Assembly (NCBI RefSeq): GCF_039536245.1
Contig: NZ_BAAAYN010000017.1
Span: forward strand, 1-61,799
Source: Cryptosporangium minutisporangium
GTDB taxonomy: Bacteria; Actinomycetota; Actinomycetes; Mycobacteriales; Cryptosporangiaceae
Direction of reading: 5' to 3'
Length of the DNA: 61,799 bases
The notes under the pieces are model-generated. The model searched no databases, was not told where the DNA came from, and worked only from the letters and a program-made list of their open reading frames with translations. Made by a program: the position numbers and the translations under genes. Below are positions 15,881 to 51,371 of this stretch, piece by piece (the stretch's first letter is position 1; the number at the start of each line of letters is the position of its first letter).

Positions 15881-17932
15881 GTGGCGCAACTGGCCGTACA
15901 CGTCGAGTTCCTGGGCGAGTTCGGCCGGCTCGACCCGGCTGAGCGCGAGGACCTCCGGGCCGCACTGACCCGCTTGCCCGAGCTTCCGCTGGAGACGACG
16001 CCCGGCGCCAGGGACGACCGCCTCCGCACGGCGCGCCTCACCGACCGGCTGCGCGCGACGGTCGCCGCGCCGCACGGCGTCCGATTACTGCTCGGCGTGC
16101 GGCCGGACGCGGAGGCCGTCACCTGGGCGAAGCACCACGCGCTTTCGGTGAACACCGTCTCCGGCGTCCTGGAGATCACCTGTGTCGAGGAGCTCGAACG
16201 CCTGCTCCCCGACTACCGCAAGGCAGCCGAAGAGGCACCCGCACTGCTGTTCGACCGGATGTCCGACGCCCAGCTACACCGGCTCGGCATCAGCCCGGAC
16301 GTCCTGGCGATCGCCCGGACGATCCGCACTTCCGACCAGCTCCGCATGCTCGAACACGTGCTGCCCGAGGCGCAGTACACGATCCTTCACCTGCTCGGCG
16401 ACGGGCTGCTGCCCCCGAGCGGTACTGAGCAGACCTATCCGGACGACGTCGCCGCCGCGATCCGACGCTCGCAGGGCCGGATCGCGCTCGTCGACGGCCC
16501 AGCCGAGCTGCTGGAACTCCTCGCGATCGCGCCGTCCCGCCAGCGGGTCTTCCTGCATCCGGAGCAGGACGCGGTGGCCTACCGGCCCTCCTACGCCGGC
16601 CCGGCGATCGTCTTCGGTGGCCCCGGCACCGGGAAGACGGTGACCGCCCTGCACCGCGTCCGGCACCTGGTGACCCGTACCGACCTCCCGCCGTCGTCCG
16701 TGCTGCTCACCTCGTTCTCGGAGGGACTGGCCGCCGCGCTGGAGCGGGACCTCGCCCAGATCCTGGACGTGCGGCAGCGCCTGGCCGTCCGGGTGGTCAA
16801 CGTGGACCAGCTCGCCTCGGAGTTGGTCAGCGAGCGTCGGGGCACGCTCCGCTACCTCACCGACGACGAGTACACCCGGCTCTGGGCGGACGCCTCCCGG
16901 CGAACCGGCGGACGGTACGGGCCGCACGTCCTCCGGCAGGAGTGGGAGGGCGTCGTCTTCGCGCAGCGCATCGCCGACCTCGACGGGTACCTGGCCGCCG
17001 ATCGTCGCGGGCGCGGCCGACGGCTGGCCACGACGCAGAAGCAGCAGCTCTGGCCCGGTCTGGCCGAGGCGAGCCGGGTGCTGCTCGCCACCGGCGTGTG
17101 GACACCGCTGACCGTCGCCGACCACGCCGCGGTGTTGCTCGAGCAGCAACCAGAAAAGCCTTTCGCGCACGTGGTCGTCGACGAGGTGCAGGATCTGCAC
17201 CCGGCTCAGTGGCGGCTGCTCCGGGCCGCCGTCGCGGCGGGTCCGGACGACCTGTTCCTCACCGGGGACGCGCACCAGCGCATCCACGGCTACCGGGTGC
17301 AGCTGAAGGCGCTCGGCATCGACGTCGGCGACCGGTCGCAGCGACTGACGATGAACTACCGCACGACCGCCGAGATCCTCGACTGGGCGCTGTGGGTGCT
17401 CGCCGAGTCCGACTCGGACGACCTGGACGGCGGGATCGACTCGATGCTCGGCTACCGCTCGGCCCGGCGCGGCGGGGAGCCCGAACTGGTGGGTTATCCC
17501 ACGGCGGGGGCGGAGCACGCGGGATTGGTCGAGGCGCTCCGGGGCTGGCACGCCGAGGGCGTCGACTGGCGAGAGATCGGGGTCGCCGCCCGGACGCCGC
17601 AGGTCGCCCGTGCCGCCGTGGCGGTGCTCACCGACGCCGACGTGCCGGTGGACGACGACGGGGTCACGGTCGCGACCATGCACGGAATGAAGGGCCTGGA
17701 GTTCCGGCGGGTCGCGTTGATCGGCATCACCGACGGCGCGGTGCCGGATTCGTCCGCGCTCACCCCCGAGGACGACGATCCGCTCGGGTACGCGCTGGAC
17801 CTCCAGCAAGAACGATCGCTGTTGTTCGTGGCCGCCACCCGGGCGCGTGAGGCGCTGCGCATTTCGTGGTGGGGATCGCCGAGTTCGCTACTCCCGCGAG
17901 GGAACCCTTTTCAACCTCCGGCCTGCTCGTGA
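15881..17932 (+). CDS. UvrD/Rep-type superfamily 1 DNA helicase
   Basis: A 683-residue SF1A helicase. The first 240 residues are a non-helicase region rich in leucine and charged residues, which I do not recognise. Then come Walker A GGPGTGKT (246-253), motif II DEVQD (434-438), motif III GDAHQRIHGYR, motif IV NYRTTAEILDWA, motif V TMHGMKGLEFRRV and motif VI LLFVAATRAREAL. GTG 15881 is preceded by GGAGG (15870-15874); an upstream in-frame start at 15779 would overlap the DUF262 start codon. The last ten codons run into a palindromic repeat (NPFQPPACS then stop). Role could be repair or anti-phage defence with the DUF262 partner. Confidence 0.9.
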   Translation: MAQLAVHVEFLGEFGRLDPAEREDLRAALTRLPELPLETTPGARDDRLRTARLTDRLRATVAAPHGVRLLLGVRPDAEAVTWAKHHALSVNTVSGVLEITCVEELERLLPDYRKAAEEAPALLFDRMSDAQLHRLGISPDVLAIARTIRTSDQLRMLEHVLPEAQYTILHLLGDGLLPPSGTEQTYPDDVAAAIRRSQGRIALVDGPAELLELLAIAPSRQRVFLHPEQDAVAYRPSYAGPAIVFGGPGTGKTVTALHRVRHLVTRTDLPPSSVLLTSFSEGLAAALERDLAQILDVRQRLAVRVVNVDQLASELVSERRGTLRYLTDDEYTRLWADASRRTGGRYGPHVLRQEWEGVVFAQRIADLDGYLAADRRGRGRRLATTQKQQLWPGLAEASRVLLATGVWTPLTVADHAAVLLEQQPEKPFAHVVVDEVQDLHPAQWRLLRAAVAAGPDDLFLTGDAHQRIHGYRVQLKALGIDVGDRSQRLTMNYRTTAEILDWALWVLAESDSDDLDGGIDSMLGYRSARRGGEPELVGYPTAGAEHAGLVEALRGWHAEGVDWREIGVAARTPQVARAAVAVLTDADVPVDDDGVTVATMHGMKGLEFRRVALIGITDGAVPDSSALTPEDDDPLGYALDLQQERSLLFVAATRAREALRISWWGSPSSLLPRGNPFQPPACS

Positions 17933-17973
17933 GGTCAGCGACCTCAGCGACGGCCGGTCGAAAAGAGTTCCCT
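17899..17973. repeat. Palindromic dispersed repeat, copy A (overlaps helicase 3' end)
   Basis: The outer arms AGGGAACCCTTTTC (17899-17912) and GAAAAGAGTTCCCT (17960-17973) are complementary with one mismatch; inside lies a second inverted repeat, GAGGTC with GACCTC, plus CCGGCC with GGCCGG. The 69-bp core 17902-17970 matches 50009-50077 at 55 of 69 positions without a gap. The left part encodes the last residues of the helicase and includes its TGA stop. Folded as RNA it would also serve as a transcription terminator. Confidence 0.8.
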
Positions 17974-18083
17974 GATACTCCCTGGTATCACCAGCATCCG
18001 ATTTCCCCGATAAAACGGTGATTATCAATCAATACCGGGGCGTCGTCGTCGCACCAGACGAATCGGTGGAAGGATCTTGGCGT

Positions 18084-19445
18084 ATGAGCCAACGGACGCC
18101 CAAGCGCAGGCCGCCAGCGAGCCGCCCGCGCTCGTCCTCGCATTTGTCCCTGGCTACTCCCCCTCCGCCGGAAACCACCCACCCGGCGGACGCACTACCC
18201 GAGAACCTCGTCCGACTGCTGTTCCGGCAGGCCGCTGGCCTGGTCGACGAGGACGACCCGATCCAGGCGGAGCTTTGGTGCTCCGACGTGCTCGGCGCGG
18301 TGTGGGCGGCCACGGACGGCGATCCGGCGGCTGAGGAGACGTTCGCGGACGCGTGGATCGCCGCCGCCGAAGCCCTCGACGACCCCGACCGCCCGGCGGC
18401 GCTGACCGCACTGACCGCGCTGAGCAGGATCGCCGGCAGCGCGTCCGCACGGCGGGCCGCGACAGTTGCGGCGGACCGGATCGCGGCCACCGGAGTACCG
18501 CGTCCACGCTGGGCAGTACCTGCCGACGGGGCAGCCGACGACGTCTCCGCCGGAGAGTGCTGGCGCTACGGCGACGTGTTCGGCGACCAGGAGACCGTTC
18601 TCTGCGCGTTCCGCCGCGGGTCGAGCGAGCACGCGATGCTGGTCCTGATCGACCACACGCTGGGCGGCATCGCCAAGGACGTCTTCTTCACCGAGGCGGT
18701 CGCCAGCAGCCTCGCCGACCTGCAGTACGAGCTGGCCTCGACGCCGTTCGCGTTCCTGGAGCCGATCGAACCCGCAGCGGCCCGGCGCCGCCTGCAGCAG
18801 GCGTTCGCGATCACCGACGGGCTGGTCGAGCCCCGCGTCAACGAGGAGCTGGCACCGCACCGGGCGCTGGCCCTGGCCCGGATCCGGCAGCTGCCACCGA
18901 GCATCGGAAGCATCGTCCCGGAGCCTGCCGTGGAGCCGGAAGCCCTGGTCGAGGAGTTCCTCGCCGCTCCGGAAGCGGCCGACCTGCCCGACGCCGAGCT
19001 GGCCGCACGCTGGGCGGGGCTGCTGATCGACCGCGCGCTGGCCCACGCCGACACGCCGGCTCGGGTCGGCCCCGGCGTGCTCGACGAACTGCTGCTGGTC
19101 GACGTCCCCGAACACGCGGTGCTGGACGCGGCGGCGAAGAGCGCGATGCCCGGCGTCCTCGCGGCGTGGATCCGCTGGGCCGGGCGCCGGCAGAGCCTCT
19201 CCGAGCCAGCGGTGGCGTGGCTGGAGAACGCGTTGGACGAGATGCTGGACGAGTTCTCCGAGGCTTACCGGGACCCGGGAGCGGTCGCACACCGTAATAC
19301 CTGCCCGGACGCCGTCGACCTCCGATCGCTCCGGCCGATGTGGCTCCCGATCGACCTGACCCGGTCGACACGAACACCGATATCGCCAAGTGTGTTGCGG
19401 GCCACATCCGGGGCAAGCAAAGTGGGACGCGCGCGACCGAAATAA
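18084..19445 (+). CDS. Conserved hypothetical actinobacterial protein
   Basis: A 453-residue protein without recognised domain. A basic Pro/Ser/Arg-rich N-terminus of about 40 residues leads to an almost entirely alpha-helical Ala/Asp/Glu-rich body, with a strand-like centre ETVLCAFRRGSSEHAMLVLIDHTLGG that is the best-conserved-looking part. No signal peptide or membrane helix. ATG 18084 has AAGGA about 10 nt upstream; an in-frame TTG/ATT-type extension to 18018 is unlikely. It follows the helicase after the hairpin of copy A, and precedes the WS/DGAT gene by 38 nt. It could belong with either neighbour; I cannot assign a function. Confidence 0.7.
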   Translation: MSQRTPKRRPPASRPRSSSHLSLATPPPPETTHPADALPENLVRLLFRQAAGLVDEDDPIQAELWCSDVLGAVWAATDGDPAAEETFADAWIAAAEALDDPDRPAALTALTALSRIAGSASARRAATVAADRIAATGVPRPRWAVPADGAADDVSAGECWRYGDVFGDQETVLCAFRRGSSEHAMLVLIDHTLGGIAKDVFFTEAVASSLADLQYELASTPFAFLEPIEPAAARRRLQQAFAITDGLVEPRVNEELAPHRALALARIRQLPPSIGSIVPEPAVEPEALVEEFLAAPEAADLPDAELAARWAGLLIDRALAHADTPARVGPGVLDELLLVDVPEHAVLDAAAKSAMPGVLAAWIRWAGRRQSLSEPAVAWLENALDEMLDEFSEAYRDPGAVAHRNTCPDAVDLRSLRPMWLPIDLTRSTRTPISPSVLRATSGASKVGRARPK

Positions 19446-19483
19446 CCAGATCGGGGCGCCGCGACCAAACCGGGGAGGTGGCG

Positions 19484-21217
19484 GTGACCGGGCTCGAACT
19501 CCCACCCAGCGCGGTGGACGTCGACTACGGGGCACTCGGCTGGGGTTCCAGCCGGACGATGTCGGACTTCGAGGCCGGCATGTGGCGGCTGGAGACCGCC
19601 GAGCCGCGGTTACGGTCGACGATCGCCGCGATCGACGTCCTCGACACCACTCCCGACTGGGCTCGGCTGGTCGCCGCCCACGAGTGGGCGCTCGGGGTGA
19701 TTCCGCGATTCCGCATGCGGGTGGTGGATCCGCCGTTTCAGCTCGGCAAGCCGGTGTGGTCGGTGGATCCGGAATTCGACCTCGACTACCACCTGCGCCG
19801 GGTCCGCCTCTCCGAGCCGGGCACGTTCGAGGCGGCGCTGGAGCTGTGCCGCACCGTGGTCGACCGGCCGTTCGACCGGGCCCGGCCGCCGTGGGAGGCG
19901 CTGCTGATCGAAGGGCTTTCCGACGGGAAGGCTGTTTACCTACTCAAAACCCACCACAGCATCACCGACGGCATGGGCGGCATGCAGCTGGTCACGCTGC
20001 TGCACAGCCGTCGGCGCGAGCCCACGCCGGGCAAGCCGTCCGCGCTGCCGCCGCCGCCCGAACGGCTGAGCGGCCTCGGCGCGCTGCGCGAGCAGCTGAC
20101 CGACCGGGCCCGGACGCTCCCGGAGACCCTGGTCGACCAGGCCCGGTCCGGTTTCCAGCTGGCCGAGCGGGTGGTCCGCGACCCGGGGAGCGCGATCGAG
20201 TTCGCGCAGTCGATGCTGCGGCTGGCCGCGCCACCGGCCTGCCCGCCGTCGCCGATCATGCGCGAACGAGGTCTCGGCCGGAGGTTCGGCACGCTGGAGA
20301 CGACCGTCGACGAGTTGCGGGCCGCCGCGAAGGCCGCGGGCGGCTCGCTCAACGACGCGTACCTGGCGGCGTTGCTCGGCGGCTTCCGCCGCTACCACGA
20401 GCGGATGGACGCGCCGATCGACCTGCTGCCGATCGGGATGCCGATCAGCCTGCGCGACTCCGCCGACCCGATGGGCGGGAACCGGTTCGGCGTCGCGCGG
20501 TTCGCCGCGCCGATCGGGATCCGGGACCCGGCCGACCGCATCCGGCGGATCCGTGAGCTGGTGCTGGACGCGCGCGCCGAGCCGGCGGCCGACATCCTGT
20601 CGCTCGCCGCCCCGGCGCTGTCCCGACTCCCGGTGGCGGCGGTGGCTCGCTGGTACCTCGGCCAGACCAGCCTGATCGACCTGCAGGCGAGCAACGTGGC
20701 GGGCATTCCGGTGCCGGTCTACATGGCCGGCGCGCGGATCGACCGGATGTTCCCGTTCGCCCCCGCGCCCGGCTGCGGCGTCATGGCGACGCTCGTGTCG
20801 CACACCGGCACGTGCTGCATCGGCGTCACGATCGACACGGCGGCGGTGACCGAGCCGGACCTGTTCCTCGAGTGCCTCTCCGAAGGACTCGCCGAGGTGC
20901 TCGCGCTCGCCGCCGGAGGTGCGGGAAAGCGGTCCACGGCCGCTGCGGGAAAGCCGAAGGCCCGTAAGCGCGCGGCCACCGACGGCGGGGGTACCGCGCG
21001 TCCCCGCAAGCGGGCCGCCGCAGCGAGCGGCGGCGCCACGAACGCGAGCGCCACCGCTCGTCCGCGGAAACGCGCGGCCTCGACCGCCGACGGTGCGGGA
21101 GCTGGGCGCTCGCGCAAACGGGCCGCCGCGCCGCCCGACGACACGGCGGCCGGCGGATCCCCAACCGGCGGCGCTGCGGGCGACGGCGGACCGGGCACCC
21201 GCCCGGAGAACACCTGA
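19484..21217 (+). CDS. Wax ester synthase / diacylglycerol acyltransferase (WS/DGAT) with basic C-terminal tail
   Basis: A 577-residue membrane-peripheral acyltransferase that esterifies diacylglycerol or fatty alcohol with acyl-CoA, making storage lipid. The catalytic motif HHSITDG is at 157-163. Other family features are the SSRTMSDFEAGMWRLE start, PPWEALLIEGL, an ND motif in LNDAYLAALLGGF, and SNVAGIPVPVYMAGA. The catalytic part ends near residue 480; residues 482-577 are an Ala/Gly tail with four RKRAA-type clusters (ARKRAA, RPRKRAA twice, RSRKRAA), resembling histone-H1-like or AT-hook-like tails. GTG 19484 follows CGGGGAGG. First gene of a lipid operon with plsB and the HAD-PlsC gene. 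Confidence 0.92.
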   Translation: MTGLELPPSAVDVDYGALGWGSSRTMSDFEAGMWRLETAEPRLRSTIAAIDVLDTTPDWARLVAAHEWALGVIPRFRMRVVDPPFQLGKPVWSVDPEFDLDYHLRRVRLSEPGTFEAALELCRTVVDRPFDRARPPWEALLIEGLSDGKAVYLLKTHHSITDGMGGMQLVTLLHSRRREPTPGKPSALPPPPERLSGLGALREQLTDRARTLPETLVDQARSGFQLAERVVRDPGSAIEFAQSMLRLAAPPACPPSPIMRERGLGRRFGTLETTVDELRAAAKAAGGSLNDAYLAALLGGFRRYHERMDAPIDLLPIGMPISLRDSADPMGGNRFGVARFAAPIGIRDPADRIRRIRELVLDARAEPAADILSLAAPALSRLPVAAVARWYLGQTSLIDLQASNVAGIPVPVYMAGARIDRMFPFAPAPGCGVMATLVSHTGTCCIGVTIDTAAVTEPDLFLECLSEGLAEVLALAAGGAGKRSTAAAGKPKARKRAATDGGGTARPRKRAAAASGGATNASATARPRKRAASTADGAGAGRSRKRAAAPPDDTAAGGSPTGGAAGDGGPGTRPENT

Positions 21218-21241
21218 ACCAGCGGACGGAAGGAGCGCATC

Positions 21242-24028
21242 GTGCGCGACCCAGAAGCAGAATCCGTCCAGCGCGGGACGCTGTACCTGGTCCAGTCGGA
21301 CACCCCACAGGAACGGCAAGTGATCGCCGCCTGGCTCACCGAGCAGCTGGGCGCCGAGAACGGCGACCGCGACAGTGGGCGGCTGGTCGTCGACCTGACC
21401 GACGAACGACTCCACGAAACCCTCGCGGACGCCGGCGACCTGCTGGTCACCCCGCTCCGGGTGGCCTGGCTCCCGGCCGAGGAGAGCGACAAACCGCTCG
21501 CGAAGGTCCGTACGGCCGTGGTCCGGATGGGCGCCCGCCGCAAGCAGGCGACCGTACAGCGGCTGCTCCTGCGCCGCGGATCCGACCGGCACCGGGTACT
21601 GGTCGGTGAGCCCGCCACCGTCGACGACCTGCGCGAGCGGTGGCAGCGGCAGGCGTCGGCAGGCAATCGAGCCGACTTCGCGCGGTTTGTTCAGCGCCAG
21701 GCCGTGCTCGCCCTCGACCGTGCCGAGCGCGCGCTGATCGGAAGCCAGTACAAGGTCGCCCGGTACGTCGTTGAAGAGATCACCGCGAGCCCTCGCTTCC
21801 GCACCGGCGTCGAGAAGCTCGCGGTCGAGCTGGACCTGCCCGTCGAGGAGGTCTACCAGCGGGCGCTGACCGCGCTGCAACAGATGGTCGCCGCCCAGAG
21901 CCGTCGGGCGATCGACGCCTGGAACCGCCTCGGCCGGTACTTCTCCCGCGCCTACCGGGTAACGGTCGACGACTCGAAGGCCGACGAACTGCGCGAGCTC
22001 GGGCGCAAGTACCCGCTCGTGTTCCTGCCCAGCCACCGGTCCTATCTCGATCCGCTGGTGCTCCGGCCGGCGCTGCTCGCCCACGGCCTGCCGCTCAACC
22101 ACGTGATGGGCGGCATCAACATCGACTTCTGGCCGGTCGGGCCGCTGACCCGCCGCAGCGGTTACGTGTTCATCCGGCGCAGCATCGCCGACGACGCCGT
22201 GTACCGCTGGGTCCTCCGCGAGTACATGGGCTACCTGCTCTCCAAGCGCTTCAACCTGGAGTGGTACATCGAGGGCGGCCGCAGCCGCACCGGCAAGCTC
22301 CGCCCGCCCCGCTACGGCCTGCTCACGTACTTGGCCGAGGCGTTCCGGTCGAGCGGCGCCCAGGACGTCTACCTGGTGCCGGTCGCGCTCAGCTACGACC
22401 AGCTCTACGAGGTCGGCGTGATGGCCGAGGAGGCACACGGCGCCGCGAAGTCGCCGGAGAGCTTCGCCTGGTTGCTCAAGTTCAACCGGGCTCAGGACAC
22501 CCAGCGAGGCCACGTCCAGGTGCGGTTCGGCGAGCCGCTCTCGCTGCGGAAGGCACTCGCCGACGAGCCCGACACCCGCCTGGCGGTGCAGAAGACCGCC
22601 TTCGAGGTCAGTCACCGGATCAATGAGGCCAGCCCGGTGATGCCCCGGTCGTTGGTCACGCTCGCCCTGCTCGGGATCGAGGACCGCGCGCTCACCGTCG
22701 CCGAGGTCACCGCCGTCCTCGACCCGCTGGTGGCCTACTTCTCGGCACGTGGGCTGGCCAACCGCACCGGGCTCGGGCTCGCCGACGAGCGCGGCGTCCG
22801 CCACACGCTGGACGAGCTGGCGAACGCCGGGGTCGTCGAGCGTTACGACAAGGGCATCGAGCCGGTGTATCGGGTCGGCCCCGACCAGCACCTGGTCGCC
22901 GCCTTCTACCGGAACAACACGATTCACTTCCTGATCACGCGGGCGGTGGCCGAGCTCATGCTGCAGGCTGTCGCTGCGCGACAGCTCCGTTCCGAGGCGC
23001 ACGCGGACGCTGCGCAGCCGGGCACCGCGGGTGCGGCGGCCGCCGCACCGAGCGAGATGGCTCTGCTGGAGTACGGCTGGCAGGCCGCCCTGGCGCTGCG
23101 GGACCTGCTCAAGTTCGAGTTCTTCTTCAGCGACAAGGAAGCGTTCCGGACCGAGCTGCACCGCGAGCTGGCGTTGATCGACCCGGACTGGCGGTCGCGC
23201 CTGAGCGACCCGGACGGCGCCGCGACGCTGCTGGCCTCCGCCCGGCCGCACTTGGCCCACCGGGTGCTGCAGCCGTTCCTGGAGGCGTACTGGGTGGTCG
23301 CCCAGCGGCTGGCCGCGCGCGATCCACGTCAGCCGGTGGAGACCAAGGCGTTCACCCGGGAGTGCCTGGACGTCGCCAGGCAGCTCCGGATGCAGCAGCA
23401 GCTGGCCAGCACCGAGTCGATCTCCGGGGAGCTGTTCGCCACCGCACTCAAGCTGGCGGCGAACCGCGACCTGGTCGACCCGGGCCGGGACGAGGTGCGC
23501 CGGGCTCGGCAGGAGTTCGCGGACGAGATCGACGGCTGGGTCCGCCGGGTGCGCCAGGTGCGGACGCTCGCCCTCGGCGGAACCGGCTCCTCCGAAGGCC
23601 CGTCCGCCGAGGCGGCGGCCGATCACCCGTCCACCGGGGGTCCGCCCGGCGGATCCGACCCGGGCGGCTCGGGAGCGGCCGGACCCGATCCGACTGCTGC
23701 CGAAACCGAGACGACCGGCGCCGGACTCGGGACGACCGGCGCCGGACCCGATCCGACCGCTACCGGCGCCGGGGCCGGGACGACCGGCTTCCGGGCGGCC
23801 GGCTCGGAAGCGGACGGTCCAGAGGCGGGCGGTTCGGAGGCGGGCGGTCCGGAGGCGGGCGGTCCAGAGGCGGGCGGTTCGGAGGCGGGCGGTCCGGAGG
23901 CGGGCGCCGTCGGCGGCACGACCGAGGCGAGCCACGGCTCGGCGTCCGGATCGCCGGGAGCAGCTGACAGCGCCGCGTCGCCGACCGTGACGGTGAGCGC
24001 CCGCCGACCGGGGGTATCTCGATCGTGA
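21242..24028 (+). CDS. plsB: Glycerol-3-phosphate 1-O-acyltransferase PlsB
   Basis: A 928-residue membrane-associated enzyme that adds the first acyl chain to glycerol-3-phosphate. After an N-terminal helical region the acyltransferase motifs are HRSYLD (H(X)4D, near residue 263), GGINIDFWPVGPLTRRSGYVF split by motif II, EGGRSRTGKLRPP (motif III) and VPVALSYDQLYE (motif IV). This matches long-form PlsB up to about residue 780. The remaining 150 residues are a low-complexity Gly/Thr/Ser/Pro/Glu tail, including five perfect-length EAGG(S/P) units. GTG 21242 follows GGAAGGAG. The same gene set (WS/DGAT, plsB2, plsC) occurs as Rv2482c-Rv2484c in Mycobacterium tuberculosis. Confidence 0.93.
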   Translation: MRDPEAESVQRGTLYLVQSDTPQERQVIAAWLTEQLGAENGDRDSGRLVVDLTDERLHETLADAGDLLVTPLRVAWLPAEESDKPLAKVRTAVVRMGARRKQATVQRLLLRRGSDRHRVLVGEPATVDDLRERWQRQASAGNRADFARFVQRQAVLALDRAERALIGSQYKVARYVVEEITASPRFRTGVEKLAVELDLPVEEVYQRALTALQQMVAAQSRRAIDAWNRLGRYFSRAYRVTVDDSKADELRELGRKYPLVFLPSHRSYLDPLVLRPALLAHGLPLNHVMGGINIDFWPVGPLTRRSGYVFIRRSIADDAVYRWVLREYMGYLLSKRFNLEWYIEGGRSRTGKLRPPRYGLLTYLAEAFRSSGAQDVYLVPVALSYDQLYEVGVMAEEAHGAAKSPESFAWLLKFNRAQDTQRGHVQVRFGEPLSLRKALADEPDTRLAVQKTAFEVSHRINEASPVMPRSLVTLALLGIEDRALTVAEVTAVLDPLVAYFSARGLANRTGLGLADERGVRHTLDELANAGVVERYDKGIEPVYRVGPDQHLVAAFYRNNTIHFLITRAVAELMLQAVAARQLRSEAHADAAQPGTAGAAAAAPSEMALLEYGWQAALALRDLLKFEFFFSDKEAFRTELHRELALIDPDWRSRLSDPDGAATLLASARPHLAHRVLQPFLEAYWVVAQRLAARDPRQPVETKAFTRECLDVARQLRMQQQLASTESISGELFATALKLAANRDLVDPGRDEVRRARQEFADEIDGWVRRVRQVRTLALGGTGSSEGPSAEAAADHPSTGGPPGGSDPGGSGAAGPDPTAAETETTGAGLGTTGAGPDPTATGAGAGTTGFRAAGSEADGPEAGGSEAGGPEAGGPEAGGSEAGGPEAGAVGGTTEASHGSASGSPGAADSAASPTVTVSARRPGVSRS
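23822..23907 (+). repeat. 15-bp tandem repeat coding EAGG(S/P) in the PlsB tail
   Basis: Five complete 15-bp units of the form GAGGCGGGCGGTYCR run from 23822 to 23896, followed by a partial sixth. Variation is confined to the codon for Ser or Pro and the wobble after it. The unit is a whole number of codons, so copy-number change keeps the frame and only alters tail length. Confidence 0.9.
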
Positions 24029-25485: not shown

Positions 25486-25506
25486 GGAGATCGCTACCGT
25501 TGATTC

Positions 25507-26948: not shown

Positions 26949-26952
26949 TCCG

Positions 26953-27459: not shown

Positions 27460-27577
27460 AGTTCGGAAGCCTACGCGCCGACGGAGCAACCGCCTCGGCG
27501 GTCACTGCCCACCACCTACAAGCGCGCGCCACCACCCGCCGCCGCGTGCCACCGCCGCGAAAAGGTTCACTGGAGGG

Positions 27578-40401: not shown

Positions 40402-40769
40402 TGGTCCTCCTTCACACAGACGGTTCCCATGAACCGTCCGAGGCGACCCGCACCGGTGGAGGTTGTTCACCGACATTGCGGGACCAGGCAATTCGTACCG
40501 CTGAGAACAGGCGTATTCCAGATCTGTTTCCGTTTTGCGACCTTGCCAGCCAGACATTCAGCCGGAAGAAACTCGGCGTTGGTCCAAATCCGGCAAACTC
40601 GGTCTCCTGCTGTGTGCCTCGTCACTGCCCGCTTGACCTGCTAAAGCATGCTTACCGAGGCGACCGGCCTGGCCAGAGGCCGTCCCCGACGCCGACCTAT
40701 CCCCCGTTCAACGGACACAGTGGAGAATCGGTATCGTTTCGGTGACGGACTCGGGGGTACCTCAGAGCG
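40402..40769. other. 368-bp divergent intergenic region
   Basis: It lies between the ABC operon (reverse) and the Ser/Thr kinase (forward) and must carry both promoters. It is AT-richer than the flanking genes, notably around 40540-40720. It contains the GACGGTTC palindrome near the left edge. On the right, TTCAAC and TATCGT before the kinase start are separated by 19 bp, a weak promoter match. No small gene is evident. Confidence 0.45.
40419..40438. promoter_or_regulatory. Perfect palindrome in the leader of the ABC operon
   Basis: GACGGTTC-CCAT-GAACCGTC, perfect 8-bp arms, 17 nt upstream of the binding-protein start and just outside its AAGGAGG. The position suits a repressor operator or a leader hairpin that could affect access to the ribosome binding site. 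No regulator gene is adjacent to identify the ligand. Confidence 0.5.
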
Positions 40770-42677: not shown

Positions 42678-42700
42678 CGCCCCTCTCGGACAATGGGGGC

Positions 42701-44949: not shown

Positions 44950-45011
44950 GGCGGGGTCCTTCCGAAACGGAACTAATGGCACATTTAGTGCGATTTTAGG
45001 CCACTAGTTAC

Positions 45012-46604
45012 CTATTGCGCGGCCCCGTTCCCCGGACGTGGTGCCGACGTCGACACCGGCGTGACCTTGACCTCCACCGCGACCTCCTCGATCGCGGGCA
45101 CCTCCGCCACGGGTGACTCACCGGACCGCACGCCCGCCACGTCCTCGGTGCGCTCCGGCGCCGTCGACGTCTCCGGAGCCGCCGGAGCGGCCAGCGACCC
45201 GTCCGCGTGGTGCGGGGCGTCCTCCCCGTGCCGAGGGGGCACGGGAGGCAACGGCTCGATCGGAATCTTCGCCATCGCCTTCGGATCGTGGATCGGGTGC
45301 TCCTCGACCTCGTACCGGCGGATGTACGACCCGACGAACGTCTGGCTGATGGCGGTGAACGGGATCGCCAGGATCGCCCCGATCGGCCCGAGCACGGCGG
45401 CACCCGCCAGCACGGCACCGAAGGCCACGGCCGGATGCAGGTCGAGCGTCCGCGCAGTGATCTTCGGCTGCAGCAGGTAGTTCTCCACCTGCTGGTAGAT
45501 CACCACGAACGCGAGCAGGAACAAGGCATCCACCGGGTCGGATACCAACGCCACGATCATCGGCAGCGTCGCCGCCAGGTAGGTACCGACGGTGGGGATC
45601 AGCTGGGAAACCAGCCCGACCCAGAGCGCCAGCGCCACCGCGTACGGGACGCCGAGCATCGTCAGCACGATGTAGTGCGCAAGCGAGGACACCAGCGCGA
45701 GCAGGAGCCGGGAGTACAGGTACCCGCCGGTCTTGTCGACCGCGATCTCCCAGGCCCGCATGACGTCCCGCTGGCGGGCCGGCGGCAGCACCGAGCACAG
45801 CGACCGACGCACCCGGGGTGCGTCCGCGCAGAGGTAGTAGCCGAACAGGATCACGGTCAACGTCTGGAAGATGACGCCGAACACGCTGGTGCTCAGATCG
45901 ACCGCGTTCGTCGCGACGCCCTCCAGCCAACGCCGTACCGGACCGTCGTCAGCCGTGACCTGGTTCTGGATCTGCTGGATCGAGATGTTCGTATCGAACG
46001 TGCTGTTGATCCACTCGATCGTCAGGTCGAGGTACTGCGGGAACCGCGCGGAGAGCGTCGTCACCTGGGAGATCAGCAGCGAGCCGACCGCCACCATGAA
46101 CCCGATCAGCGAGAGGAGCACCACGAGCATCGTCACGCCGGTGGCCGCGCCCCGACGCCACCCGCGACGCGCCAGCCAGTTCACGGCCGGTTCCAGCGCG
46201 AAGGCCAGGAACTGCGCCAGCAGCAGCAATCCGATCAGGTCGCGCAGCCGACCGAGCAGCCACCAGGTCAGGAAGAACACCGACACGGTGAGCGCCGCGA
46301 GCACGAAGGCCCGAGGGAGCCACCGCGGCATCTGGTCGCTGCGACGCCGATCCCCCGGCGCTCGGTGGCGTTCGGCGTCGTCCCGGCCGAACGTCGGGTC
46401 GCCCAAGTCGTCGACGGACGCCGCTCGCCGCGGGTCGGGGCGCCCGTGGTCGGAGTCCGGCTCCGCCAGCGGCGCGTCCATGTCCGGGTCGGGCGCGGAC
46501 AGGTGCCCGCTCCGGTGTCGGCCACTCGGTCGCCCCGCCGCCACGCGCTGCCAAGCGGCCCTGGCGTAGGCGGGAAGAGCGAGCAGACGCTCGCGCTTGG
46601 CCAT
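45012..46604 (-). CDS. AI-2E family transporter (PerM/YdiK type)
   Basis: A 530-residue integral membrane protein. After about 85 hydrophilic residues rich in Asp, Arg and Pro there are seven or eight helices with the family patterns LEPAVNWLARRGWRRG, GVPYAVALALWVGLVSQLIPTVG, and QQVENYLLQPKI. Members are reported to export the AI-2 signal or to act as Na+/H+ antiporters; which fits here is open. A hydrophilic C-terminus of about 90 residues, Pro/Glu/Ala-rich, follows. ATG 46604 is preceded by GGGGAGGGG. It may be transcribed with the GH8 gene 62 nt downstream, though that gap is AT-rich and could hold a promoter. Confidence 0.92.
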   Translation of the reverse strand: MAKRERLLALPAYARAAWQRVAAGRPSGRHRSGHLSAPDPDMDAPLAEPDSDHGRPDPRRAASVDDLGDPTFGRDDAERHRAPGDRRRSDQMPRWLPRAFVLAALTVSVFFLTWWLLGRLRDLIGLLLLAQFLAFALEPAVNWLARRGWRRGAATGVTMLVVLLSLIGFMVAVGSLLISQVTTLSARFPQYLDLTIEWINSTFDTNISIQQIQNQVTADDGPVRRWLEGVATNAVDLSTSVFGVIFQTLTVILFGYYLCADAPRVRRSLCSVLPPARQRDVMRAWEIAVDKTGGYLYSRLLLALVSSLAHYIVLTMLGVPYAVALALWVGLVSQLIPTVGTYLAATLPMIVALVSDPVDALFLLAFVVIYQQVENYLLQPKITARTLDLHPAVAFGAVLAGAAVLGPIGAILAIPFTAISQTFVGSYIRRYEVEEHPIHDPKAMAKIPIEPLPPVPPRHGEDAPHHADGSLAAPAAPETSTAPERTEDVAGVRSGESPVAEVPAIEEVAVEVKVTPVSTSAPRPGNGAAQ

Positions 46605-46950
46605 CCCGCCCCTCCCCTTGGGTGTTACCAGCCCGATCGCTTCACCTCGGAGAACGCCGGAGGCTGAAGCGGGTTCAGTGCCACGAGGATACGGCGACCA
46701 CGCACGGCATGGATCGGCCCACTGCCGCGCGGGCTCGAGGGACCCGCGCACCGCTTCCATGCGGTTGCGGACGCTGTTTAATCTGTGCGTCGATGAAGGG
46801 TCTGACACGGACGTGTGAAGGACCACCTAGGATGGACAGGACTCTTCCAACCCGAATCGGTCCCGATTCGGGTTCAGTCCGTCCTGAGCTGGGCACGACA
46901 GTGTCAGCCCATCGAGACGTTCACCCCTCAGCTAGGAAGGAGGAGCCTGG
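46605..46950. other. 346-bp divergent intergenic region
   Basis: It separates the AI-2E-family gene from the small membrane protein gene at 46951. TAGGAT at 46828-46833 could be a -10 box for the rightward gene, but the only TTGACA-like hexamer (CTGACA, 46802) is 20 bp away. The dominant feature is the long palindrome at 46849-46874. Short ORFs here lack codon bias. Confidence 0.45.
46849..46874. promoter_or_regulatory. Perfect 12-bp palindrome upstream of the membrane protein gene
   Basis: AACCCGAATCGG-TC-CCGATTCGGGTT, perfect arms with a 2-bp centre, ending 77 nt before the ATG at 46951. The flanks extend the symmetry imperfectly (GGAC...ACT left, AGTCC right). No gene ends nearby on the forward strand, so it is more likely an operator or leader structure than a terminator. 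Confidence 0.55.
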
Positions 46951-47658
46951 ATGGTTCTCTTCGTCACCATGGTCGTCCTGGCGGTCGCCGTCGCGACAAC
47001 CGTGACCGCGCGCGACCGGAAGCGCCGCCAAGGTAGGGGGCAACGCGCGATGACCGCCCTCTCGATCACCGGCGGCGTGCTCTGGACGGCCGCCGCAGCC
47101 GGCCTCGCGGTCATGAGCGGCGTTCACCCGGTGCTCCTCGCGCTGGTCGGCGCCTCGCTCGGGTACGCGGTGCACCGGCTCACCCAGCGCGCCTTCGCCA
47201 CCCGGAACGAGCAGCGTCCGACCGCACTGTTCCTGCTGAACCGCCGGCGCACCCCGCGCTCGGCGTCGGCCGACGACATCACGTTGACGCTCGACACGAT
47301 CCGGACGCTGGACCTGGAGCAGTCCGAACGCGAGCCGCTGCACTGGTCGGTGGTGGCCGCCGCAGGTACCGCGGCCACCGCACTCGAGGGGTACTGGGCG
47401 TACCAGCACCTCATCGCCGGCGGCGGAGTGTTTTCCGACCTCTCCGCGCTGGCCGGATTCGCGCTGCTCGCCACGCTGACCGTCGCCCTCACCGGCGTCG
47501 CGGGCCTGGCCGTGCACATGCGGTCGACGCCGCGCCTCGACCCGGCATCGCAGCAGATGCCGGCGCCGAGCGAGATGCCGACGATCGCGTTCACGCCGAT
47601 TCAGGTCAGCAAGGGCAGCCGGCGTCGCTCCCGACCGACGGCGTCCGCGAGTCGCTGA
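46951..47658 (+). CDS. Small polytopic membrane protein of unknown function
   Basis: A 235-residue membrane protein. One N-terminal helix (MVLFVTMVVLAVAVATTV) and a basic loop are followed by two close helices around 37-70, then a charged segment with DDITLTLDTIRTLDLEQSERE, then two helices (about 130-185) and a hydrophilic tail. I do not recognise a family. AGGAAGGAGGAG lies immediately before ATG 46951, a strong ribosome binding site. A weak hairpin (GGAGCC / GGCTCC, 47672-47697) followed by TTAATT may end the transcript. Confidence 0.7.
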   Translation: MVLFVTMVVLAVAVATTVTARDRKRRQGRGQRAMTALSITGGVLWTAAAAGLAVMSGVHPVLLALVGASLGYAVHRLTQRAFATRNEQRPTALFLLNRRRTPRSASADDITLTLDTIRTLDLEQSEREPLHWSVVAAAGTAATALEGYWAYQHLIAGGGVFSDLSALAGFALLATLTVALTGVAGLAVHMRSTPRLDPASQQMPAPSEMPTIAFTPIQVSKGSRRRSRPTASASR

Positions 47659-47671
47659 CCCACCACTACCG

Positions 47672-47697
47672 GGAGCCCCAATCCGGTCGTAGGCTCC
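47672..47697 (+). terminator. Weak hairpin terminator
   Basis: GGAGCC and GGCTCC, 6-bp arms around a 14-nt loop, followed directly by TTAATTAG. It lies 14 nt after the stop of the membrane protein gene. Stem is short, so confidence is limited. Confidence 0.45.
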
Positions 47698-47772
47698 TTA
47701 ATTAGCGCGAAATTGCCTGACCCGACCGCGAGCCCTTTCTTCGATTACCGAGCAGGCCGCAGAGGAGATGCC

Positions 47773-47964
47773 ATGACGCCGCGCAGCTTTCCGTACTCGC
47801 CCGATATCGAGGCCGATCTGACCGACGTCGCCGAGCAGTCGCGCACGCTGGTGGACGAGGACGACGACACGACGCTTCCGCCGCTCGGCAATGCCGAGGT
47901 GCCGGACGCGGACGCGATCGAACAGTCCCGCGCCGTTCCGATCGACGAGGACGACTACCGCTAG
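47773..47964 (+). CDS. Small acidic protein with an internal repeat
   Basis: A 63-residue protein, strongly acidic. Two copies of a motif of the form EQSR-4X-DEDD are visible: AEQSRTLVDEDD and IEQSRAVPIDEDD. It is preceded by AGAGGAG (ATG 47773), and codon use fits the genome, so it is likely real despite its size. No membrane segment or Cys. I know no function. The TAG stop overlaps the left end of the candidate mobile element at 47963. Confidence 0.65.
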   Translation: MTPRSFPYSPDIEADLTDVAEQSRTLVDEDDDTTLPPLGNAEVPDADAIEQSRAVPIDEDDYR

Positions 47965-48128
47965 GGCATGTTTCAAAGGTTCAGGCCGCCGTGGGCGTGG
48001 TCCAGGCGGCGGTCCGGCAAGGCGGAGGTTCGTCCGGATACCGTTTTTGTATCCGGACGGGCCGACAACGCGGCCGGTCGTCGTCTGGCCTCGGCCACGG
48101 CGGGTTGCTGGCCTTCGAAGCACGCCCT
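47963..48128. mobile_element. Candidate MITE-like element with imperfect 17-bp terminal inverted repeats
   Basis: AGGGCATGTTTCAAAGG (47963-47979) faces CCTTCGAAGCACGCCCT (48112-48128); the right end reversed reads AGGGCGTGCTTCGAAGG and matches the left at 14 of 17 positions. The 166 bp between carry no gene but do hold a strong hairpin at 48031-48059. No target-site duplication can be seen. GGG-starting ends are common in IS5-type elements, but I did not identify a parent. It could also be an IS remnant or chance. Confidence 0.4.
48031..48059. terminator. Hairpin with T5 loop (terminator-like)
   Basis: CGTCCGGATAC and its exact complement (11-bp arms) flank CGTTTTT. It lies after the small acidic protein gene and inside the candidate mobile element. 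It may terminate that gene's transcript or be part of the element's structure. Confidence 0.65.
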
Positions 48129-48143
48129 TGGCCTGGCTAACGG

Positions 48144-48188
48144 GCCGTCAGGGTTGGCGGGTGGCCTGTAACCGCCAACCCTGACGGC
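48144..48188. terminator. Strong hairpin terminator for the winged-helix gene
   Basis: GCCGTCAGGGTTGGCGG and its perfect complement, 17-bp arms around an 11-nt loop, 14 nt beyond the stop of the reverse-strand winged-helix gene. One of the longest perfect stems in the window. Confidence 0.88.
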
Positions 48189-48202
48189 TGCCCGGGTGGC
48201 CG

Positions 48203-49069
48203 TCAGGCACCCTCGTGCACGACGGCGATCCGCTCCGCCGCGTCGAGCCGGTATCCGACCCCGCGAACCGTGGAGATCACCGGACCGGTGCCCTCGACCT
48301 TGGCCCGCAGCCGCCGCACGTGGACGTCGACCGTGCGCTCGCCGCAGATGACCTGGTGCCCCCAGACCAGCCGGAGCAACTGGGGCCGGTCGAAAACCCG
48401 CCCGGCGTGCTCGGCCAGGAAGAGCAGCAGATCGAACTCCCGGCGGGTGAGCAGCAGTTGCTCCCCGTCGAGCAGGGCCACCCGGCGGGCGGGGTAGATC
48501 TGCAGCGGTGCCCCTGCTGCTGCGGGCTGTCCCGTCGGCGCGGCCGGACCGGGGGCGACGCGCGCCGCCACCGGAGCCTCGGCTGCTCGCTGCTCGACCG
48601 TCTTCGGCTCGGCGGACCACGGGGCAGGCGCGACGAACGCCGGCAGGGGCACCGGCGACGAGACCGACCCGCCGACCGACGTCGGAGCGGGCACCGGCGT
48701 CGGCCGCGCGCCGGACGTCCAGGTGGCACGGCCCGGTTGTGACGGAAGCGTGGTGACCGAACTCAGCGCGGGCCGACCGGTCCGGGGAGCGCTGTTCCCG
48801 GCGCCGATCTGTAGCCCCACAGCGGCGGAGACCTCGGTGCTCGGCGATTCGGCGCCGGTCGAGTCGACCAGGTCGCGGATCTCACCGGCCAAGCGCGTCG
48901 CGGTCTCCAGCGCCTTGTGACCGGAGACGGCTACCTCGACCAGGATCGTCGCCGACGAGGGGGATGCGGTACTTCGGGGCGCTGCGACCCGGCCGGCGGG
49001 GGTGGTGGTGCGGGGACGCTGCGGCGCGACGCGCGGTCGGGCGTTCTGGGCGACGGGCTGTACGGTCAT
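48203..49069 (-). CDS. Orphan winged-helix (OmpR-type) transcriptional regulator
   Basis: A 288-residue protein with only a C-terminal OmpR/PhoB DNA-binding domain (about 190-280): REFDLLLFLAEHAGRVFDRPQLL, then the recognition helix ERTVDVHVRRLRAKV and the wing GTGPVISTVRGVGYRLD. A receiver domain is absent. Instead the first 185 residues are a short segment with ATILVEVAVSGHKALETATRLAG (an alpha/beta fragment, residues 40-75) and a long Pro/Ala/Thr/Val linker. Similar orphans in Streptomyces control nitrogen or development genes. GGAG precedes ATG 49069 by 7 nt; a longer start at 49099 is unsupported. Confidence 0.85.
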   Translation of the reverse strand: MTVQPVAQNARPRVAPQRPRTTTPAGRVAAPRSTASPSSATILVEVAVSGHKALETATRLAGEIRDLVDSTGAESPSTEVSAAVGLQIGAGNSAPRTGRPALSSVTTLPSQPGRATWTSGARPTPVPAPTSVGGSVSSPVPLPAFVAPAPWSAEPKTVEQRAAEAPVAARVAPGPAAPTGQPAAAGAPLQIYPARRVALLDGEQLLLTRREFDLLLFLAEHAGRVFDRPQLLRLVWGHQVICGERTVDVHVRRLRAKVEGTGPVISTVRGVGYRLDAAERIAVVHEGA

Positions 49070-49506
49070 CGGCTGCTCCTGGCAGGGGGACGCGACCACA
49101 GCTCGGGGCGTGGTCGACGGCGTCGGGCGAAGAGGGGTCGGCGGATGCAGACGGCGTAGGAAGCAACGGTCCGACTACGCCGTGGACCGGCCGGTTGCCG
49201 TACTCAGGCTGTGTTGCCTCGTCAGGAGCGCCGACAGCGCGCGCTGGATGCGCGTCCGAGGTCGACGTAGAGGCGACCGGTCAAGTTCCAGGCGTCGCTC
49301 ATGACGTCAGTCTTTCAGAGACGGGTCAAGAAAACAATTCCTATCGGCATAGTAGGTAGAGGCGAGTGAACCATGCCACCACGGCGGCAAAAGTTGTAAC
49401 GGAATGCACAAGAATCTCGCCCAACTCACTCACCTGAACTGGCAAGACGCGCCACATTCCCCGATATCTCCGGTACCGCGCGGTTTCACCGAGGCACGAT
49501 GACGCC
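49070..49506. other. 437-bp divergent intergenic region
   Basis: It lies between the winged-helix gene (reverse) and the thioesterase gene (forward). From about 49310 to 49480 it is markedly AT-richer than the surroundings (AAGAAAACAATTCC, AAAAGTTGTAACGGAATG), as expected for promoters. GGTCAAG occurs twice, at 49279 and 49324, giving TTGACC on the reverse strand, but no -10 fits either. No RNA gene or ORF is recognised. Confidence 0.45.
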
Positions 49507-49998
49507 ATGCCGAACCTTCCGACGCGAGCCACGTTTCCCGTGCTCAGAGACGTGCCGACCCGCTGGCACGACAACGACCACTACGGCCACGTGAACAACG
49601 TCGTGTACTACGCCTACTTCGACACCGCGGTGAACGGCTGGCTGCTCGACGCCGCCGGCCGCGACATCCGCGAGCTCCCGGCGATCGGGCTGGTCGTGGA
49701 GACGTCCTGCCGCTACTTCCGGCCGGTCGGCTTCCCCGACCGCCTCGAAGTGGGCCTCGGCGTCGCGAAGCTCGGAAGGTCCAGCGTCGTCTACCGCTTG
49801 GCGGTGTTCCGGGAGGGCGACGACGAGGCAGTGGCGCTCGGACGGTTCGTCCACGTCTATGTCGACAGCGAGAGCAGGCGGACACTGGAGATCCCTCCGG
49901 TGCTGCGCAACGTGTTGGCACCGCTCGCCGAGAAAAGTGCCCCGACGTTCGCCGCCGCCGATCTGCTCGAAGCCACCCGTGAGGGGAGTTCCCGATGA
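49507..49998 (+). CDS. Acyl-CoA thioesterase (4HBT, hot-dog fold)
   Basis: A 163-residue thioesterase of the YbgC/FcbC group. The signature TRWHDNDHYGHVNNVVYYAYFDTAVNGWL carries the catalytic-region D (DNDHYGHVNN). A typical GLVVETSCRYFRPVGFPD strand pair follows. It hydrolyses an acyl- or hydroxybenzoyl-type CoA ester in the cytoplasm; the exact acid is unknown. Ribosome binding site is weak (CGAGG 12 nt before ATG 49507). Its stop overlaps the next gene's ATG (ATGA), so the two enzymes are made together. Confidence 0.9.
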   Translation: MPNLPTRATFPVLRDVPTRWHDNDHYGHVNNVVYYAYFDTAVNGWLLDAAGRDIRELPAIGLVVETSCRYFRPVGFPDRLEVGLGVAKLGRSSVVYRLAVFREGDDEAVALGRFVHVYVDSESRRTLEIPPVLRNVLAPLAEKSAPTFAAADLLEATREGSSR

Positions 49999-51371
49999 CG
50001 GACCCTATGAACCCTTTTCGACCTCCGACCTTCTCCGAGGTGGAGCCGCCTCAGCCACCGCCGGTCGAAAAGAGTTCACTGACTGAATCCGTGTTCACCT
50101 GGGGCGCACCGCCGTTGAAGTACGGTCCGGGCGCGGTCGACGAGATCGGCTACGACGTTTCGCGCCTCGGCGTCCGCAGGGTGCTGGTCCTCACCGACCC
50201 CCGGATCGCCGCCACCGGGCTGGCCGCCCGGATCGGTGAGGCACTGAAGGCGGCCGGCGTCGACCACGAACTCTACGACCAGGTGCACTGCGAGCCGACC
50301 GACGACAGCCTGCGTGCTGCGGCCGCCGCCGCGACCGAGCTCGCCGGGGCCGAGGCATTCGACGGGTTCCTCGCGGTCGGCGGCGGTTCCGTGATCGACA
50401 CCGCCAAGGCCGTCAACCTGCTGAGCACGTCCGGCGGCGACCTGATGGACTACATCAACAAGCCGGTCGGCGGGGGCCTGGCTCCGCGGAAGCCGACGAA
50501 GCCGCTGATCGCGGTCCCCACCACCGCCGGAACCGGGTCGGAGAGCACTCCGGTCTGCGTTCTGGACATCCTCGGTCTGAAGGTGAAGAGCGGGATCAGC
50601 CACCCGTCGCTGCGTCCGGTGCTGGCCGTCGTCGACCCGCTGGTGACGCTCTCGCTGCCCGCCGCGGTGACCGCGGCGTCCGGAATGGACATCGTCTGCC
50701 ACGCGCTGGAGTCCTACACCGCGCGGCCCTACACCAGCTTCCTGCGGCACGCCGCGGACGCCCGGGTCGCGTACAACGGCTCGAACCCGGTGTCCGACAC
50801 CTGGGCGGAGAAGGCGCTCGCGCTGATCGCCCGGAGCTTCCGGCGCGCGGTGCTGGTCGGCACCGACCTCGCGGCGCGCTCGGACATGATGATGGCCGCG
50901 ACGTTCGCCGGTATGGGCTTCGGCAACGCGGGCGTCCACATCCCGCACGCCTGCGCGTACCCGATCGCGGGCATGGTCCGCGATTACCGACCCGCCGGCT
51001 ACGACGTCGACGAGCCGATGGTGCCGCACGGCCAGTCGGTCTCGCTGACCGCACCGGCCGCGTTCCGCTTCACGTTCCCCACCGATCCGGACCGCCACGT
51101 CCGCGCCGCGTCGCTGCTGTCCGGCGGCCGGTCCTCCGGTGGGGCCACCGCCGACGCGGCGCCGGCCGACCGACTGCCCGAGGCACTGGTCGCGCTGATG
51201 CGCGACATCGGGATCCCGTCCGGTGTCGCCGCGGTCGGGTTCACGTCCAACGAGGTGGACGCACTGGTCGAGGGCGCGCTCAAGCAGCAGCGGCTGCTGA
51301 ACGTCGCACCTCGTGAGGTGACCGCCGAAGACCTGGCCGGCATCTTCCAGGCGTCGCTGGAGAACTGGTAG
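49995..51371 (+). CDS. Iron-containing alcohol dehydrogenase, hydroxyacid-oxoacid transhydrogenase-like
   Basis: A 458-residue Fe-ADH close to mammalian ADHFE1 (HOT), which interconverts 4-hydroxybutyrate and 2-oxoglutarate with succinic semialdehyde and 2-hydroxyglutarate. Family features: SVFTWGAPPLKYGPGAVDEIGYDV, FLAVGGGSVIDTAKAVNLL (nucleotide loop), PTTAGTGSE, and metal ligands in ASGMDIVCHALESYT and GVHIPHACAYPIAG. The normal family N-terminus starts near residue 29. The preceding residues (NPFRPPTFSEVEPPQPPPVEKSS region) are encoded by copy B of the palindromic repeat. ATG 49995 overlaps the thioesterase stop and follows GAGGGGAG, so the extension is probably translated; GTG at ESVFTWG is the alternative. 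Confidence 0.9.
   Translation: MTDPMNPFRPPTFSEVEPPQPPPVEKSSLTESVFTWGAPPLKYGPGAVDEIGYDVSRLGVRRVLVLTDPRIAATGLAARIGEALKAAGVDHELYDQVHCEPTDDSLRAAAAAATELAGAEAFDGFLAVGGGSVIDTAKAVNLLSTSGGDLMDYINKPVGGGLAPRKPTKPLIAVPTTAGTGSESTPVCVLDILGLKVKSGISHPSLRPVLAVVDPLVTLSLPAAVTAASGMDIVCHALESYTARPYTSFLRHAADARVAYNGSNPVSDTWAEKALALIARSFRRAVLVGTDLAARSDMMMAATFAGMGFGNAGVHIPHACAYPIAGMVRDYRPAGYDVDEPMVPHGQSVSLTAPAAFRFTFPTDPDRHVRAASLLSGGRSSGGATADAAPADRLPEALVALMRDIGIPSGVAAVGFTSNEVDALVEGALKQQRLLNVAPREVTAEDLAGIFQASLENW
50009..50077. repeat. Palindromic dispersed repeat, copy B (inside Fe-ADH coding sequence)
   Basis: 69 bp, matching 17902-17970 at 55 of 69 positions with no gap. Arms GAACCCTTTTCGACC and GGTCGAAAAGAGTTC are complementary with one mismatch; GAGGTGGAGCCGCCTC forms the inner symmetric part. 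It adds 23 codons to the N-terminus of the dehydrogenase, in the same frame phase as copy A uses in the helicase (AAC CCT TTT). Confidence 0.8.

What the first reader, a model, noticed from the sequence alone, without database searches (positions are those of the whole stretch)
17899..50077. A 69-bp palindromic repeat used as protein-coding sequence in two unrelated genes
Copy A (17902-17970) and copy B (50009-50077) are both exactly 69 bp, align without gaps at 55 of 69 positions, and have long complementary ends plus an inner symmetric core. 69 is a multiple of three, and both host genes read the element in the same phase (AAC CCT TTT CRA CCT CCG). In A it supplies the last codons and stop of a UvrD-like helicase; in B it supplies an extra N-terminal segment of a dehydrogenase whose family normally starts after it. 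This resembles the Rickettsia palindromic elements that insert in frame, which I do not know to be described in actinobacteria.
Basis: partly seen in the sequence, partly recalled or inferred. Interest (0 to 1): 0.72.

Follow-up and report, generated by a model that had tools for sequence, protein, structure and literature searches.

The report
Mobile palindrome translated inside bacterial proteins
A short hairpin-forming DNA repeat has spread through an actinobacterial genome and landed inside working genes, so that host proteins gain about 24 extra amino acids, a habit known before from bacteria such as Rickettsia.

Summary
Copies A and B belong to a dispersed palindromic family: 86 places in the window's own 9.23-Mb genome at E<=0.1 (79 at E<=0.001), 26 in one congener, 1 and 3 in two others, none detected in 393 further genomes of the order. 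Relatives without the insert show insertion. Copy B adds 72 bp (24 codons) near the start of an iron-containing alcohol dehydrogenase; copy A supplies the end and stop of a UvrD-like helicase. Six of eight further in-gene copies tested, in riboflavin synthase, QueA-like, DapB-like, TROVE, PIG-L/Mca-like and NmrA-like genes, are exactly 24 residues absent from the congener orthologues aligned. The consensus is open in three of six frames; its ends carry TGA, which 13 copies offer to a neighbour as stop. Codon-position patterns support translation. It works like the Rickettsia palindromic elements but differs in size. How it moves is unresolved: no IS200-type transposase in this genome, no longer element with the same ends found, and only weak support for a 3-bp target duplication. 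My searches found no report in actinobacteria.

The parts
17902..17970 (+). Palindromic element, copy A (69-bp core)
   Evidence: 73.4 bits, E 1.8e-14 with model R1, which was built with this copy among 30; empty site in G002 and G003
15779..17932 (+). Host gene of A: UvrD-like helicase; last residues (NPFQPPACS) and stop come from the element
   Evidence: ORF, Pfam; G002 and G003 helicases end ..SSLIPR* and ..SSILP* at this point, my reading of the DNA alignment
50009..50077 (+). Palindromic element, copy B (69-bp core; net gain 72 bp)
   Evidence: 87.9 bits, E 4.1e-18 with R1, also built with this copy; empty site in G001, G002 and G003
49995..51371 (+). Host gene of B: iron-containing alcohol dehydrogenase; congeners start MTDLLTESVFTWG or MTDLMTESVFTWG, here MTDP-MNPFRPPTFSEVEPPQPPPVEKSS-LTESVFTWG
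   Evidence: ORF, Pfam, congener orthologues
46618..46677 (-). Weak, possibly decayed third copy with a damaged right end
   Evidence: 24.1 bits, E 0.046 with R1; 38-bp BLAST match at 82% identity, E 0.0019; empty-site comparison unclear

Best explanation
This is a genus-restricted family of small, non-autonomous, palindromic mobile elements that are tolerated inside protein-coding genes. Shown: about 70-bp hairpin-forming copies with conserved inverted ends occupy many sites that are empty in close relatives; seven cleanly measured insertions in conserved genes (copy B and six others) each add 72 bp, so the reading frame survives; three of the six frames of the consensus are open, the main one giving MNPFQPPAFSEVERPQQSPVEKSS; and some copies whose frame is closed sit at a gene end, where the element's terminal TGA is the stop. 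Inferred: it spreads as selfish DNA, moved in trans by an enzyme that recognises the inverted ends or the hairpin; insertions persist where 24 mostly polar, proline-containing residues fall at a terminus, a linker or a tolerated loop; the residues are present in the mature proteins.
For: Copy number: 110 matches at E<=0.1 collapse to 86 places; the backwards-pattern control gives 0. Distribution: 4 of 61 and 4 of 397 genomes, both times the same four genomes of one genus. Empty sites: copy B in 3 of 3 congeners, copy A in 2 of 2 examined; 6 of 8 further in-gene copies tested lack exactly 24 residues in every congener orthologue put into the protein alignment. Pfam places inserts in or beside conserved domains; the GGDEF match stops at residue 544, where the element begins. 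In 19 f2-coding copies third codon positions diverge most (20.4% against 17.6% and 15.6%), in 19 others least (13.3% against 20.1% and 21.1%), Fisher p 0.0015. Outer-stem pairs show 25 two-sided changes against 9.6 +/- 2.6 in shuffles, 0 of 500 as high. A copy shared by G000 and G002 at a sulfotransferase start is 9 bp shorter in G002 and stays in frame. In-frame copies are also seen in G001 and G002, by open frame and Pfam only.
Against: No mobilising enzyme was identified. No clear target duplication: 11 of 75 copies have equal flanking triplets (5.4 expected, p 0.008), and the commonest left triplet is never seen on the right. Two of the eight in-gene copies tested (AraC-like, Glu/Leu dehydrogenase) give no clean 24-residue difference. 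Copy A is by my count 73, not 72, bp longer than G002. Three of the 26 copies with coding downstream are in frames that are closed in the consensus. Translation is inferred; no proteomics. The codon-position test is exploratory: four of the 19 copies were assigned by hand, and gene calls rest on a home-made codon model. Inner-stem support is weaker (68% of cells paired, 7 two-sided changes), and the one subfamily II copy folded is no better than shuffles (23 of 200 as good).
Confidence: 0.87

Rival explanations
This is mainly a rival on the mover, not on the in-frame behaviour.
For: Inverted ends; 69-bp core plus 3 bp equals the 72-bp gain; commonest left triplets GAT, ACT, AAT, AGT and right triplets ACT, AGT; equal triplets 11 of 75 against 5.4 expected, p 0.008.
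Against: 79 of 82 end-sequence matches in G000 lie inside the short copies. Of the 3 others and the 4 single ends inspected in G002 and G003, none has an inverted partner at a distance that could hold a transposase gene in about 2.5 kb on either side; the only partner was 157 bp away with 3 mismatches. Left triplet GAT (16 of 75) is not among the right triplets.
Confidence: 0.4
2. It is a REP-like hairpin moved by a RAYT (IS200/IS605-type HUH transposase) without target duplication.
For: Single-strand hairpin, no convincing duplication, base preferences beside the insertion.
Against: No Y1_Tnp (PF01797) match in the own genome, while 5 of 14 control genomes ring; ends are TGAAC/GTTCA, not the GTAG or CGTC tags of PMC3733652 (passages). 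The congeners were not searched for PF01797.
Confidence: 0.12
3. It is a functional regulatory palindrome (operator, attenuator or RNA switch) kept by selection at gene starts.
For: A number of copies lie within about 30 bp of a predicted gene start (crude gene calls); outer-stem pairs covary.
Against: Copies lie also inside coding sequence, at gene 3' ends and, in at least one case, between convergent genes; several sites are empty in congeners.
Confidence: 0.06
4. The residues are ancestral protein segments that happen to look alike in DNA.
For: Both window copies are read in one phase.
Against: The element occurs in three frames, in both orientations to genes and between genes, and orthologues lack it.
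Confidence: 0.01

Closest known systems
Rickettsia palindromic elements (RPE; Ogata et al. 2000, 2002, as summarised in PMC2229807, passages seen)
   Same: Stem-loop forming, inverted ends, intergenic and in-frame intragenic copies, many in conserved genes; the review's table marks their target duplication with a question mark.
   Different: RPE are given as 105-146 bp and Rickettsia-specific; this unit is about 70 bp (72-bp gain) and was found in one actinobacterial genus. The sequences were not compared.
Wolbachia protein-coding palindromic repeats (Ogata et al. 2005; only the title seen, in the reference list of PMC2229807)
   Same: By title, protein-coding palindromic repeats in another genus.
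   Different: Not compared; paper not seen.
ERIC/RU-1, YPAL/RU-2, Correia/NEMIS and QMITE elements (PMC2229807 and PMC5896051, passages seen)
   Same: Small non-autonomous repeats with open frames fused in frame to host genes, in the case of ERIC in several conserved protein genes; QMITE1 supplies a stop to two genes in the table of PMC5896051.
   Different: Larger (107 bp and up), with target duplications listed for ERIC, YPAL and Correia, and in other phyla.
GTAG- and CGTC-tagged REPs (PMC3733652, passages seen)
   Same: Small palindromes, some inside genes; CGTC REPs lack a dedicated transposase and include rickettsial ones.
   Different: No GTAG/CGTC tag here; CGTC repeats are listed there in five phyla, actinobacteria not among them, and the word actinobacteria does not occur in that text.

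Membership tests
Rickettsia palindromic element (RPE) | Palindromic, hairpin-forming repeat with inverted ends | tested here: met
   (subfamily II copy folded: not better than shuffles)
Rickettsia palindromic element (RPE) | In-frame insertion in conserved protein genes, shown by orthologues without it | tested here: met
   copy B and 6 of 8 further in-gene copies tested
Rickettsia palindromic element (RPE) | Unit size 105-146 bp (PMC2229807) | tested here: not met
   47 of 86 copies are 71 bp, 62 of 86 are 70-72 bp
Rickettsia palindromic element (RPE) | Occurrence in Rickettsia / sequence relationship | not tested
   no comparison with RPE sequences or Rickettsia genomes was made; copies found in 4 of 397 genomes of the order, one genus
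Rickettsia palindromic element (RPE) | Insert is present in the mature protein | not testable with these tools
   needs proteomics
REP / RAYT system | GTAG or CGTC end tag | tested here: not met
   consensus ends TGAAC...GTTCA
REP / RAYT system | IS200/IS605-type transposase (PF01797) in the genome | tested here: not met
   0 matches in own genome, 5 of 14 controls ring; congeners not searched
MITE derived from an insertion sequence | Terminal inverted repeats | tested here: met
MITE derived from an insertion sequence | Target-site duplication | tested here: inconclusive
   11 of 75 equal triplets, 5.4 expected, p 0.008; left and right preferences differ
MITE derived from an insertion sequence | Parent element with the same ends and a transposase | tested here: inconclusive
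   none found in G000-G003 at <=1 mismatch in 15 bp; shorter or more diverged ends not excluded

The most novel reading that the evidence does not exclude
The element is under selection to be harmless in genes: a 24-codon, frame-preserving unit open in three frames, with a TGA at each end for the closed frame and, where an A precedes it (39% of 75 copies), an ATG at its left edge, so that it acts as a mobile cassette of linker, start and stop. It would be a protein-coding palindrome family of a large-genome actinobacterium, arisen independently of the rickettsial ones.
Probability: 0.4. Interest if true: 0.8.

Novelty: new variant of a known kind. Interest (0 to 1): 0.7.

Why it matters
Protein-coding palindromes are, to my recollection, associated mainly with reduced intracellular genomes. 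A recent family in a 9.2-Mb actinobacterial genome, with sister species that keep the empty sites, suggests that the phenomenon is wider. It offers paired with/without enzymes to test what a 24-residue mobile insert does to a protein, and a place to look for the unknown enzyme that moves such palindromes.

Tried and rejected
Longer parent element with the same 15-bp ends: 82 matches in G000 at <=1 mismatch, 79 inside the short copies, 3 single. Single ends in G002 (3) and G003 (1) and the three of G000 were inspected with about 2.5 kb on either side: no partner at transposon distance; loose matches with 3 mismatches exist, one inverted 157 bp from a G003 end; one G003 end (475202) proved to be a further full copy and two G002 ends look like half copies. 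RAYT: none in G000. Known RNA family: none in the window at gathering thresholds. Strict DNA pattern in genome contigs and viral contigs: 0 and 0; the pattern is strict and records near the window's genome may be left out there, so this weighs little. The 30-copy gapped alignment gave a poor 8-pair consensus, so R1 is mostly a sequence model; stem pairs were counted by script on the 47 gapless copies, where a slide of +1 column also gave 25 two-sided changes, but only 44% paired cells against 82%. Copy L004 folds at z -2.8 (1 of 200 shuffles as good), subfamily II copy C23_131868 at z -1.2 (23 of 200). The G002 copy at C2:344943 has no counterpart in the window or G003, but that intergenic stretch (window about 58,314-58,386) does not align cleanly.
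Full report
OBSERVATION. Copies A and B are as described: 69 bp each, 55 of 69 identical without gaps, against a next best of 34 or 36 of 69 elsewhere in the window. The end sequence occurs 4 times in the window at <=3 mismatches, always as an end of A or B, against 0.78 expected; 0 of 100 shuffles reach 4. Folding: RNA, 0 of 200 shuffles as good for A or B; DNA, 1 of 200 for A, 0 for B.

FAMILY. BLAST with copy B gave 44 matches at E<=10 in the own genome. A covariance model from 30 copies, A and B included (8 pairs, mainly a sequence model), gave 110 matches at E<=0.1 in G000; removing opposite-strand hits of one place leaves 86 places, 79 of them at E<=0.001 and 75 at 34.9 bits or more. The tool scored 150 of 24,547 first-look candidates, so the count may be low; the weakest places may be chance. 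Lengths: 47 of 86 are 71 bp counted from T to A, 62 of 86 are 70-72 bp. The 47 fall into two subfamilies of 37 and 10, mean pairwise identity 71% and 85%.

DISTRIBUTION. Of 61 genomes (own and relatives) 4 match at E<=0.001, and of 397 genomes drawn from the order 4 match at E<=1e-4: both times the own genome and the three others of its genus; 57 and 393 have none, under filters that can lose weak matches. At E<=0.001 G002 has 26 places (28 matches less two reverse hits), G001 one, G003 two, plus one more in G003 seen by its end sequence. The organism could not be named; that it is an actinobacterium rests on 71% G+C and on the relatives of its ADH.

INSERTION. For copy B the congeners read MTDLLTES, MTDLLTES and MTDLMTES where G000 reads MTDP-MNPFRPPTFSEVEPPQPPPVEKSS-LTES: 24 extra residues. 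For copy A the helicase of G002 and G003 ends just where the element begins (my reading). Flanks of all 86 places were compared with about 400 kb each of G002 and G003 and with fetched loci of congeners; most places had no match there, some only partial or paralogous ones. Sixteen sites were aligned. By my reading empty in at least one congener: A, B, C48_67401, C17_64007, C17_316265, C17_275540, C17_308436 (a 54-bp copy) and probably C17_384950 (in G003); filled in both G000 and G002: C17_384950, C43_143504, C66_29604, C70_85173, C18_26538, C26_9858 (truncated in G000); unclear: C44_331946, C17_46618, C11_295798. Eight in-gene copies were then tested with orthologues. Riboflavin synthase (G001-G003), QueA-like (G002, G003), DapB-like (G002), TROVE (G002), PIG-L/Mca-like (G001-G003; near its start) and NmrA-like (G001-G003) lack exactly 24 residues in each orthologue of the protein alignment; the AraC-like and Glu/Leu-dehydrogenase copies give no clean difference.

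TRANSLATION. Of the six frames of the consensus three are open (sense f1, sense f2, antisense f2; read from the sequence, examples). A crude flank-based classification (home-made codon model) of the 86 places gives 7 with coding on both sides and the element open (4 in f2, 3 in f1; one of them, C11_204509, has a stop just upstream), 26 with coding downstream and the element open (14 sense f2, 6 sense f1, 3 antisense f2, 3 in frames closed in the consensus), and 13 where a neighbour's frame runs into the element's terminal TGA. Pfam names for hosts: (for example IlvD, topoisomerase IB, CobU, GH42, response regulator in G000; UDP-glucose dehydrogenase and biotin carboxylase in G002; an HTH regulator in G001). 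For N-terminal cases the real start codon is not known. Codon-position divergence differs between 19 f2-coding and 19 other 71-bp copies (p 0.0015); assignment was by flanks except four by hand. At C66_29604 the G002 copy is 9 bp shorter and stays in frame.

MECHANISM. Net gain is 72 bp at the seven clean coding sites (ADH and the six above) and, by my count, at C48_67401 and C17_64007; copy A counts 73 against G002. Flanks: T at +2 in 71% of 75, C at -3 in 65%. Equal flanking triplets in 11 of 75 (5.4 expected, p 0.008) and equal middle bases in 28 (18.8 expected, p 0.007) hint at a 3-bp duplication, 69+3=72, but the commonest left triplet, GAT (16), is not among the right ones. No PF01797 in G000; no longer element with these ends found. 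Outer stem: 82% of cells paired (shuffles 79.6%, highest 81.0%), 25 two-sided changes (shuffles 9.6 +/- 2.6, highest 17); inner stem 68% paired, 7 two-sided. The ISL2/ANT link is recalled, not from a call.

LITERATURE. Passages seen: PMC2229807, PMC3733652, PMC5896051; other papers only as search listings. Searches combining palindromic-element terms with Nocardia, actinobacteria, Frankia, actinomycete/mycobacteria and Streptomyces gave no report of protein-coding palindromes in actinobacteria among the listings seen. The library holds open-licence papers only and the listings were capped, so this is weak evidence of absence.

VERDICT. An RPE-like, in-frame inserting, mobile palindrome family in one actinobacterial genus: well supported as a fact, with translation inferred and the mover unknown.

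Noticed in passing
window 46618-46677 (-): A weak, possibly decayed third copy (24.1 bits, E 0.046); the G002 site carries a short TGAAC stretch.
   Followed up: partly
L129 (G000:C6:212409-212423): A single end of the element at the start of an open frame reading MTEVEKSSLIPL: possibly a partial copy left as an N-terminus.
   Followed up: partly
L076 and L092 (sulfotransferase start): Orthologous copy in two species with a 9-bp in-frame deletion in one: a small natural test of selection on the translated insert.
   Followed up: partly
window about 58,314-58,386: G002 has a full copy at the orthologous intergenic place (G002:C2:344943); the window has none there.
   Followed up: partly
L081 (G000 C13:20538) and L004 (G000 C17:612540): Copies inside a GGDEF domain and after a protein-kinase domain, in open frames; orthologues not fetched.
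   Followed up: no
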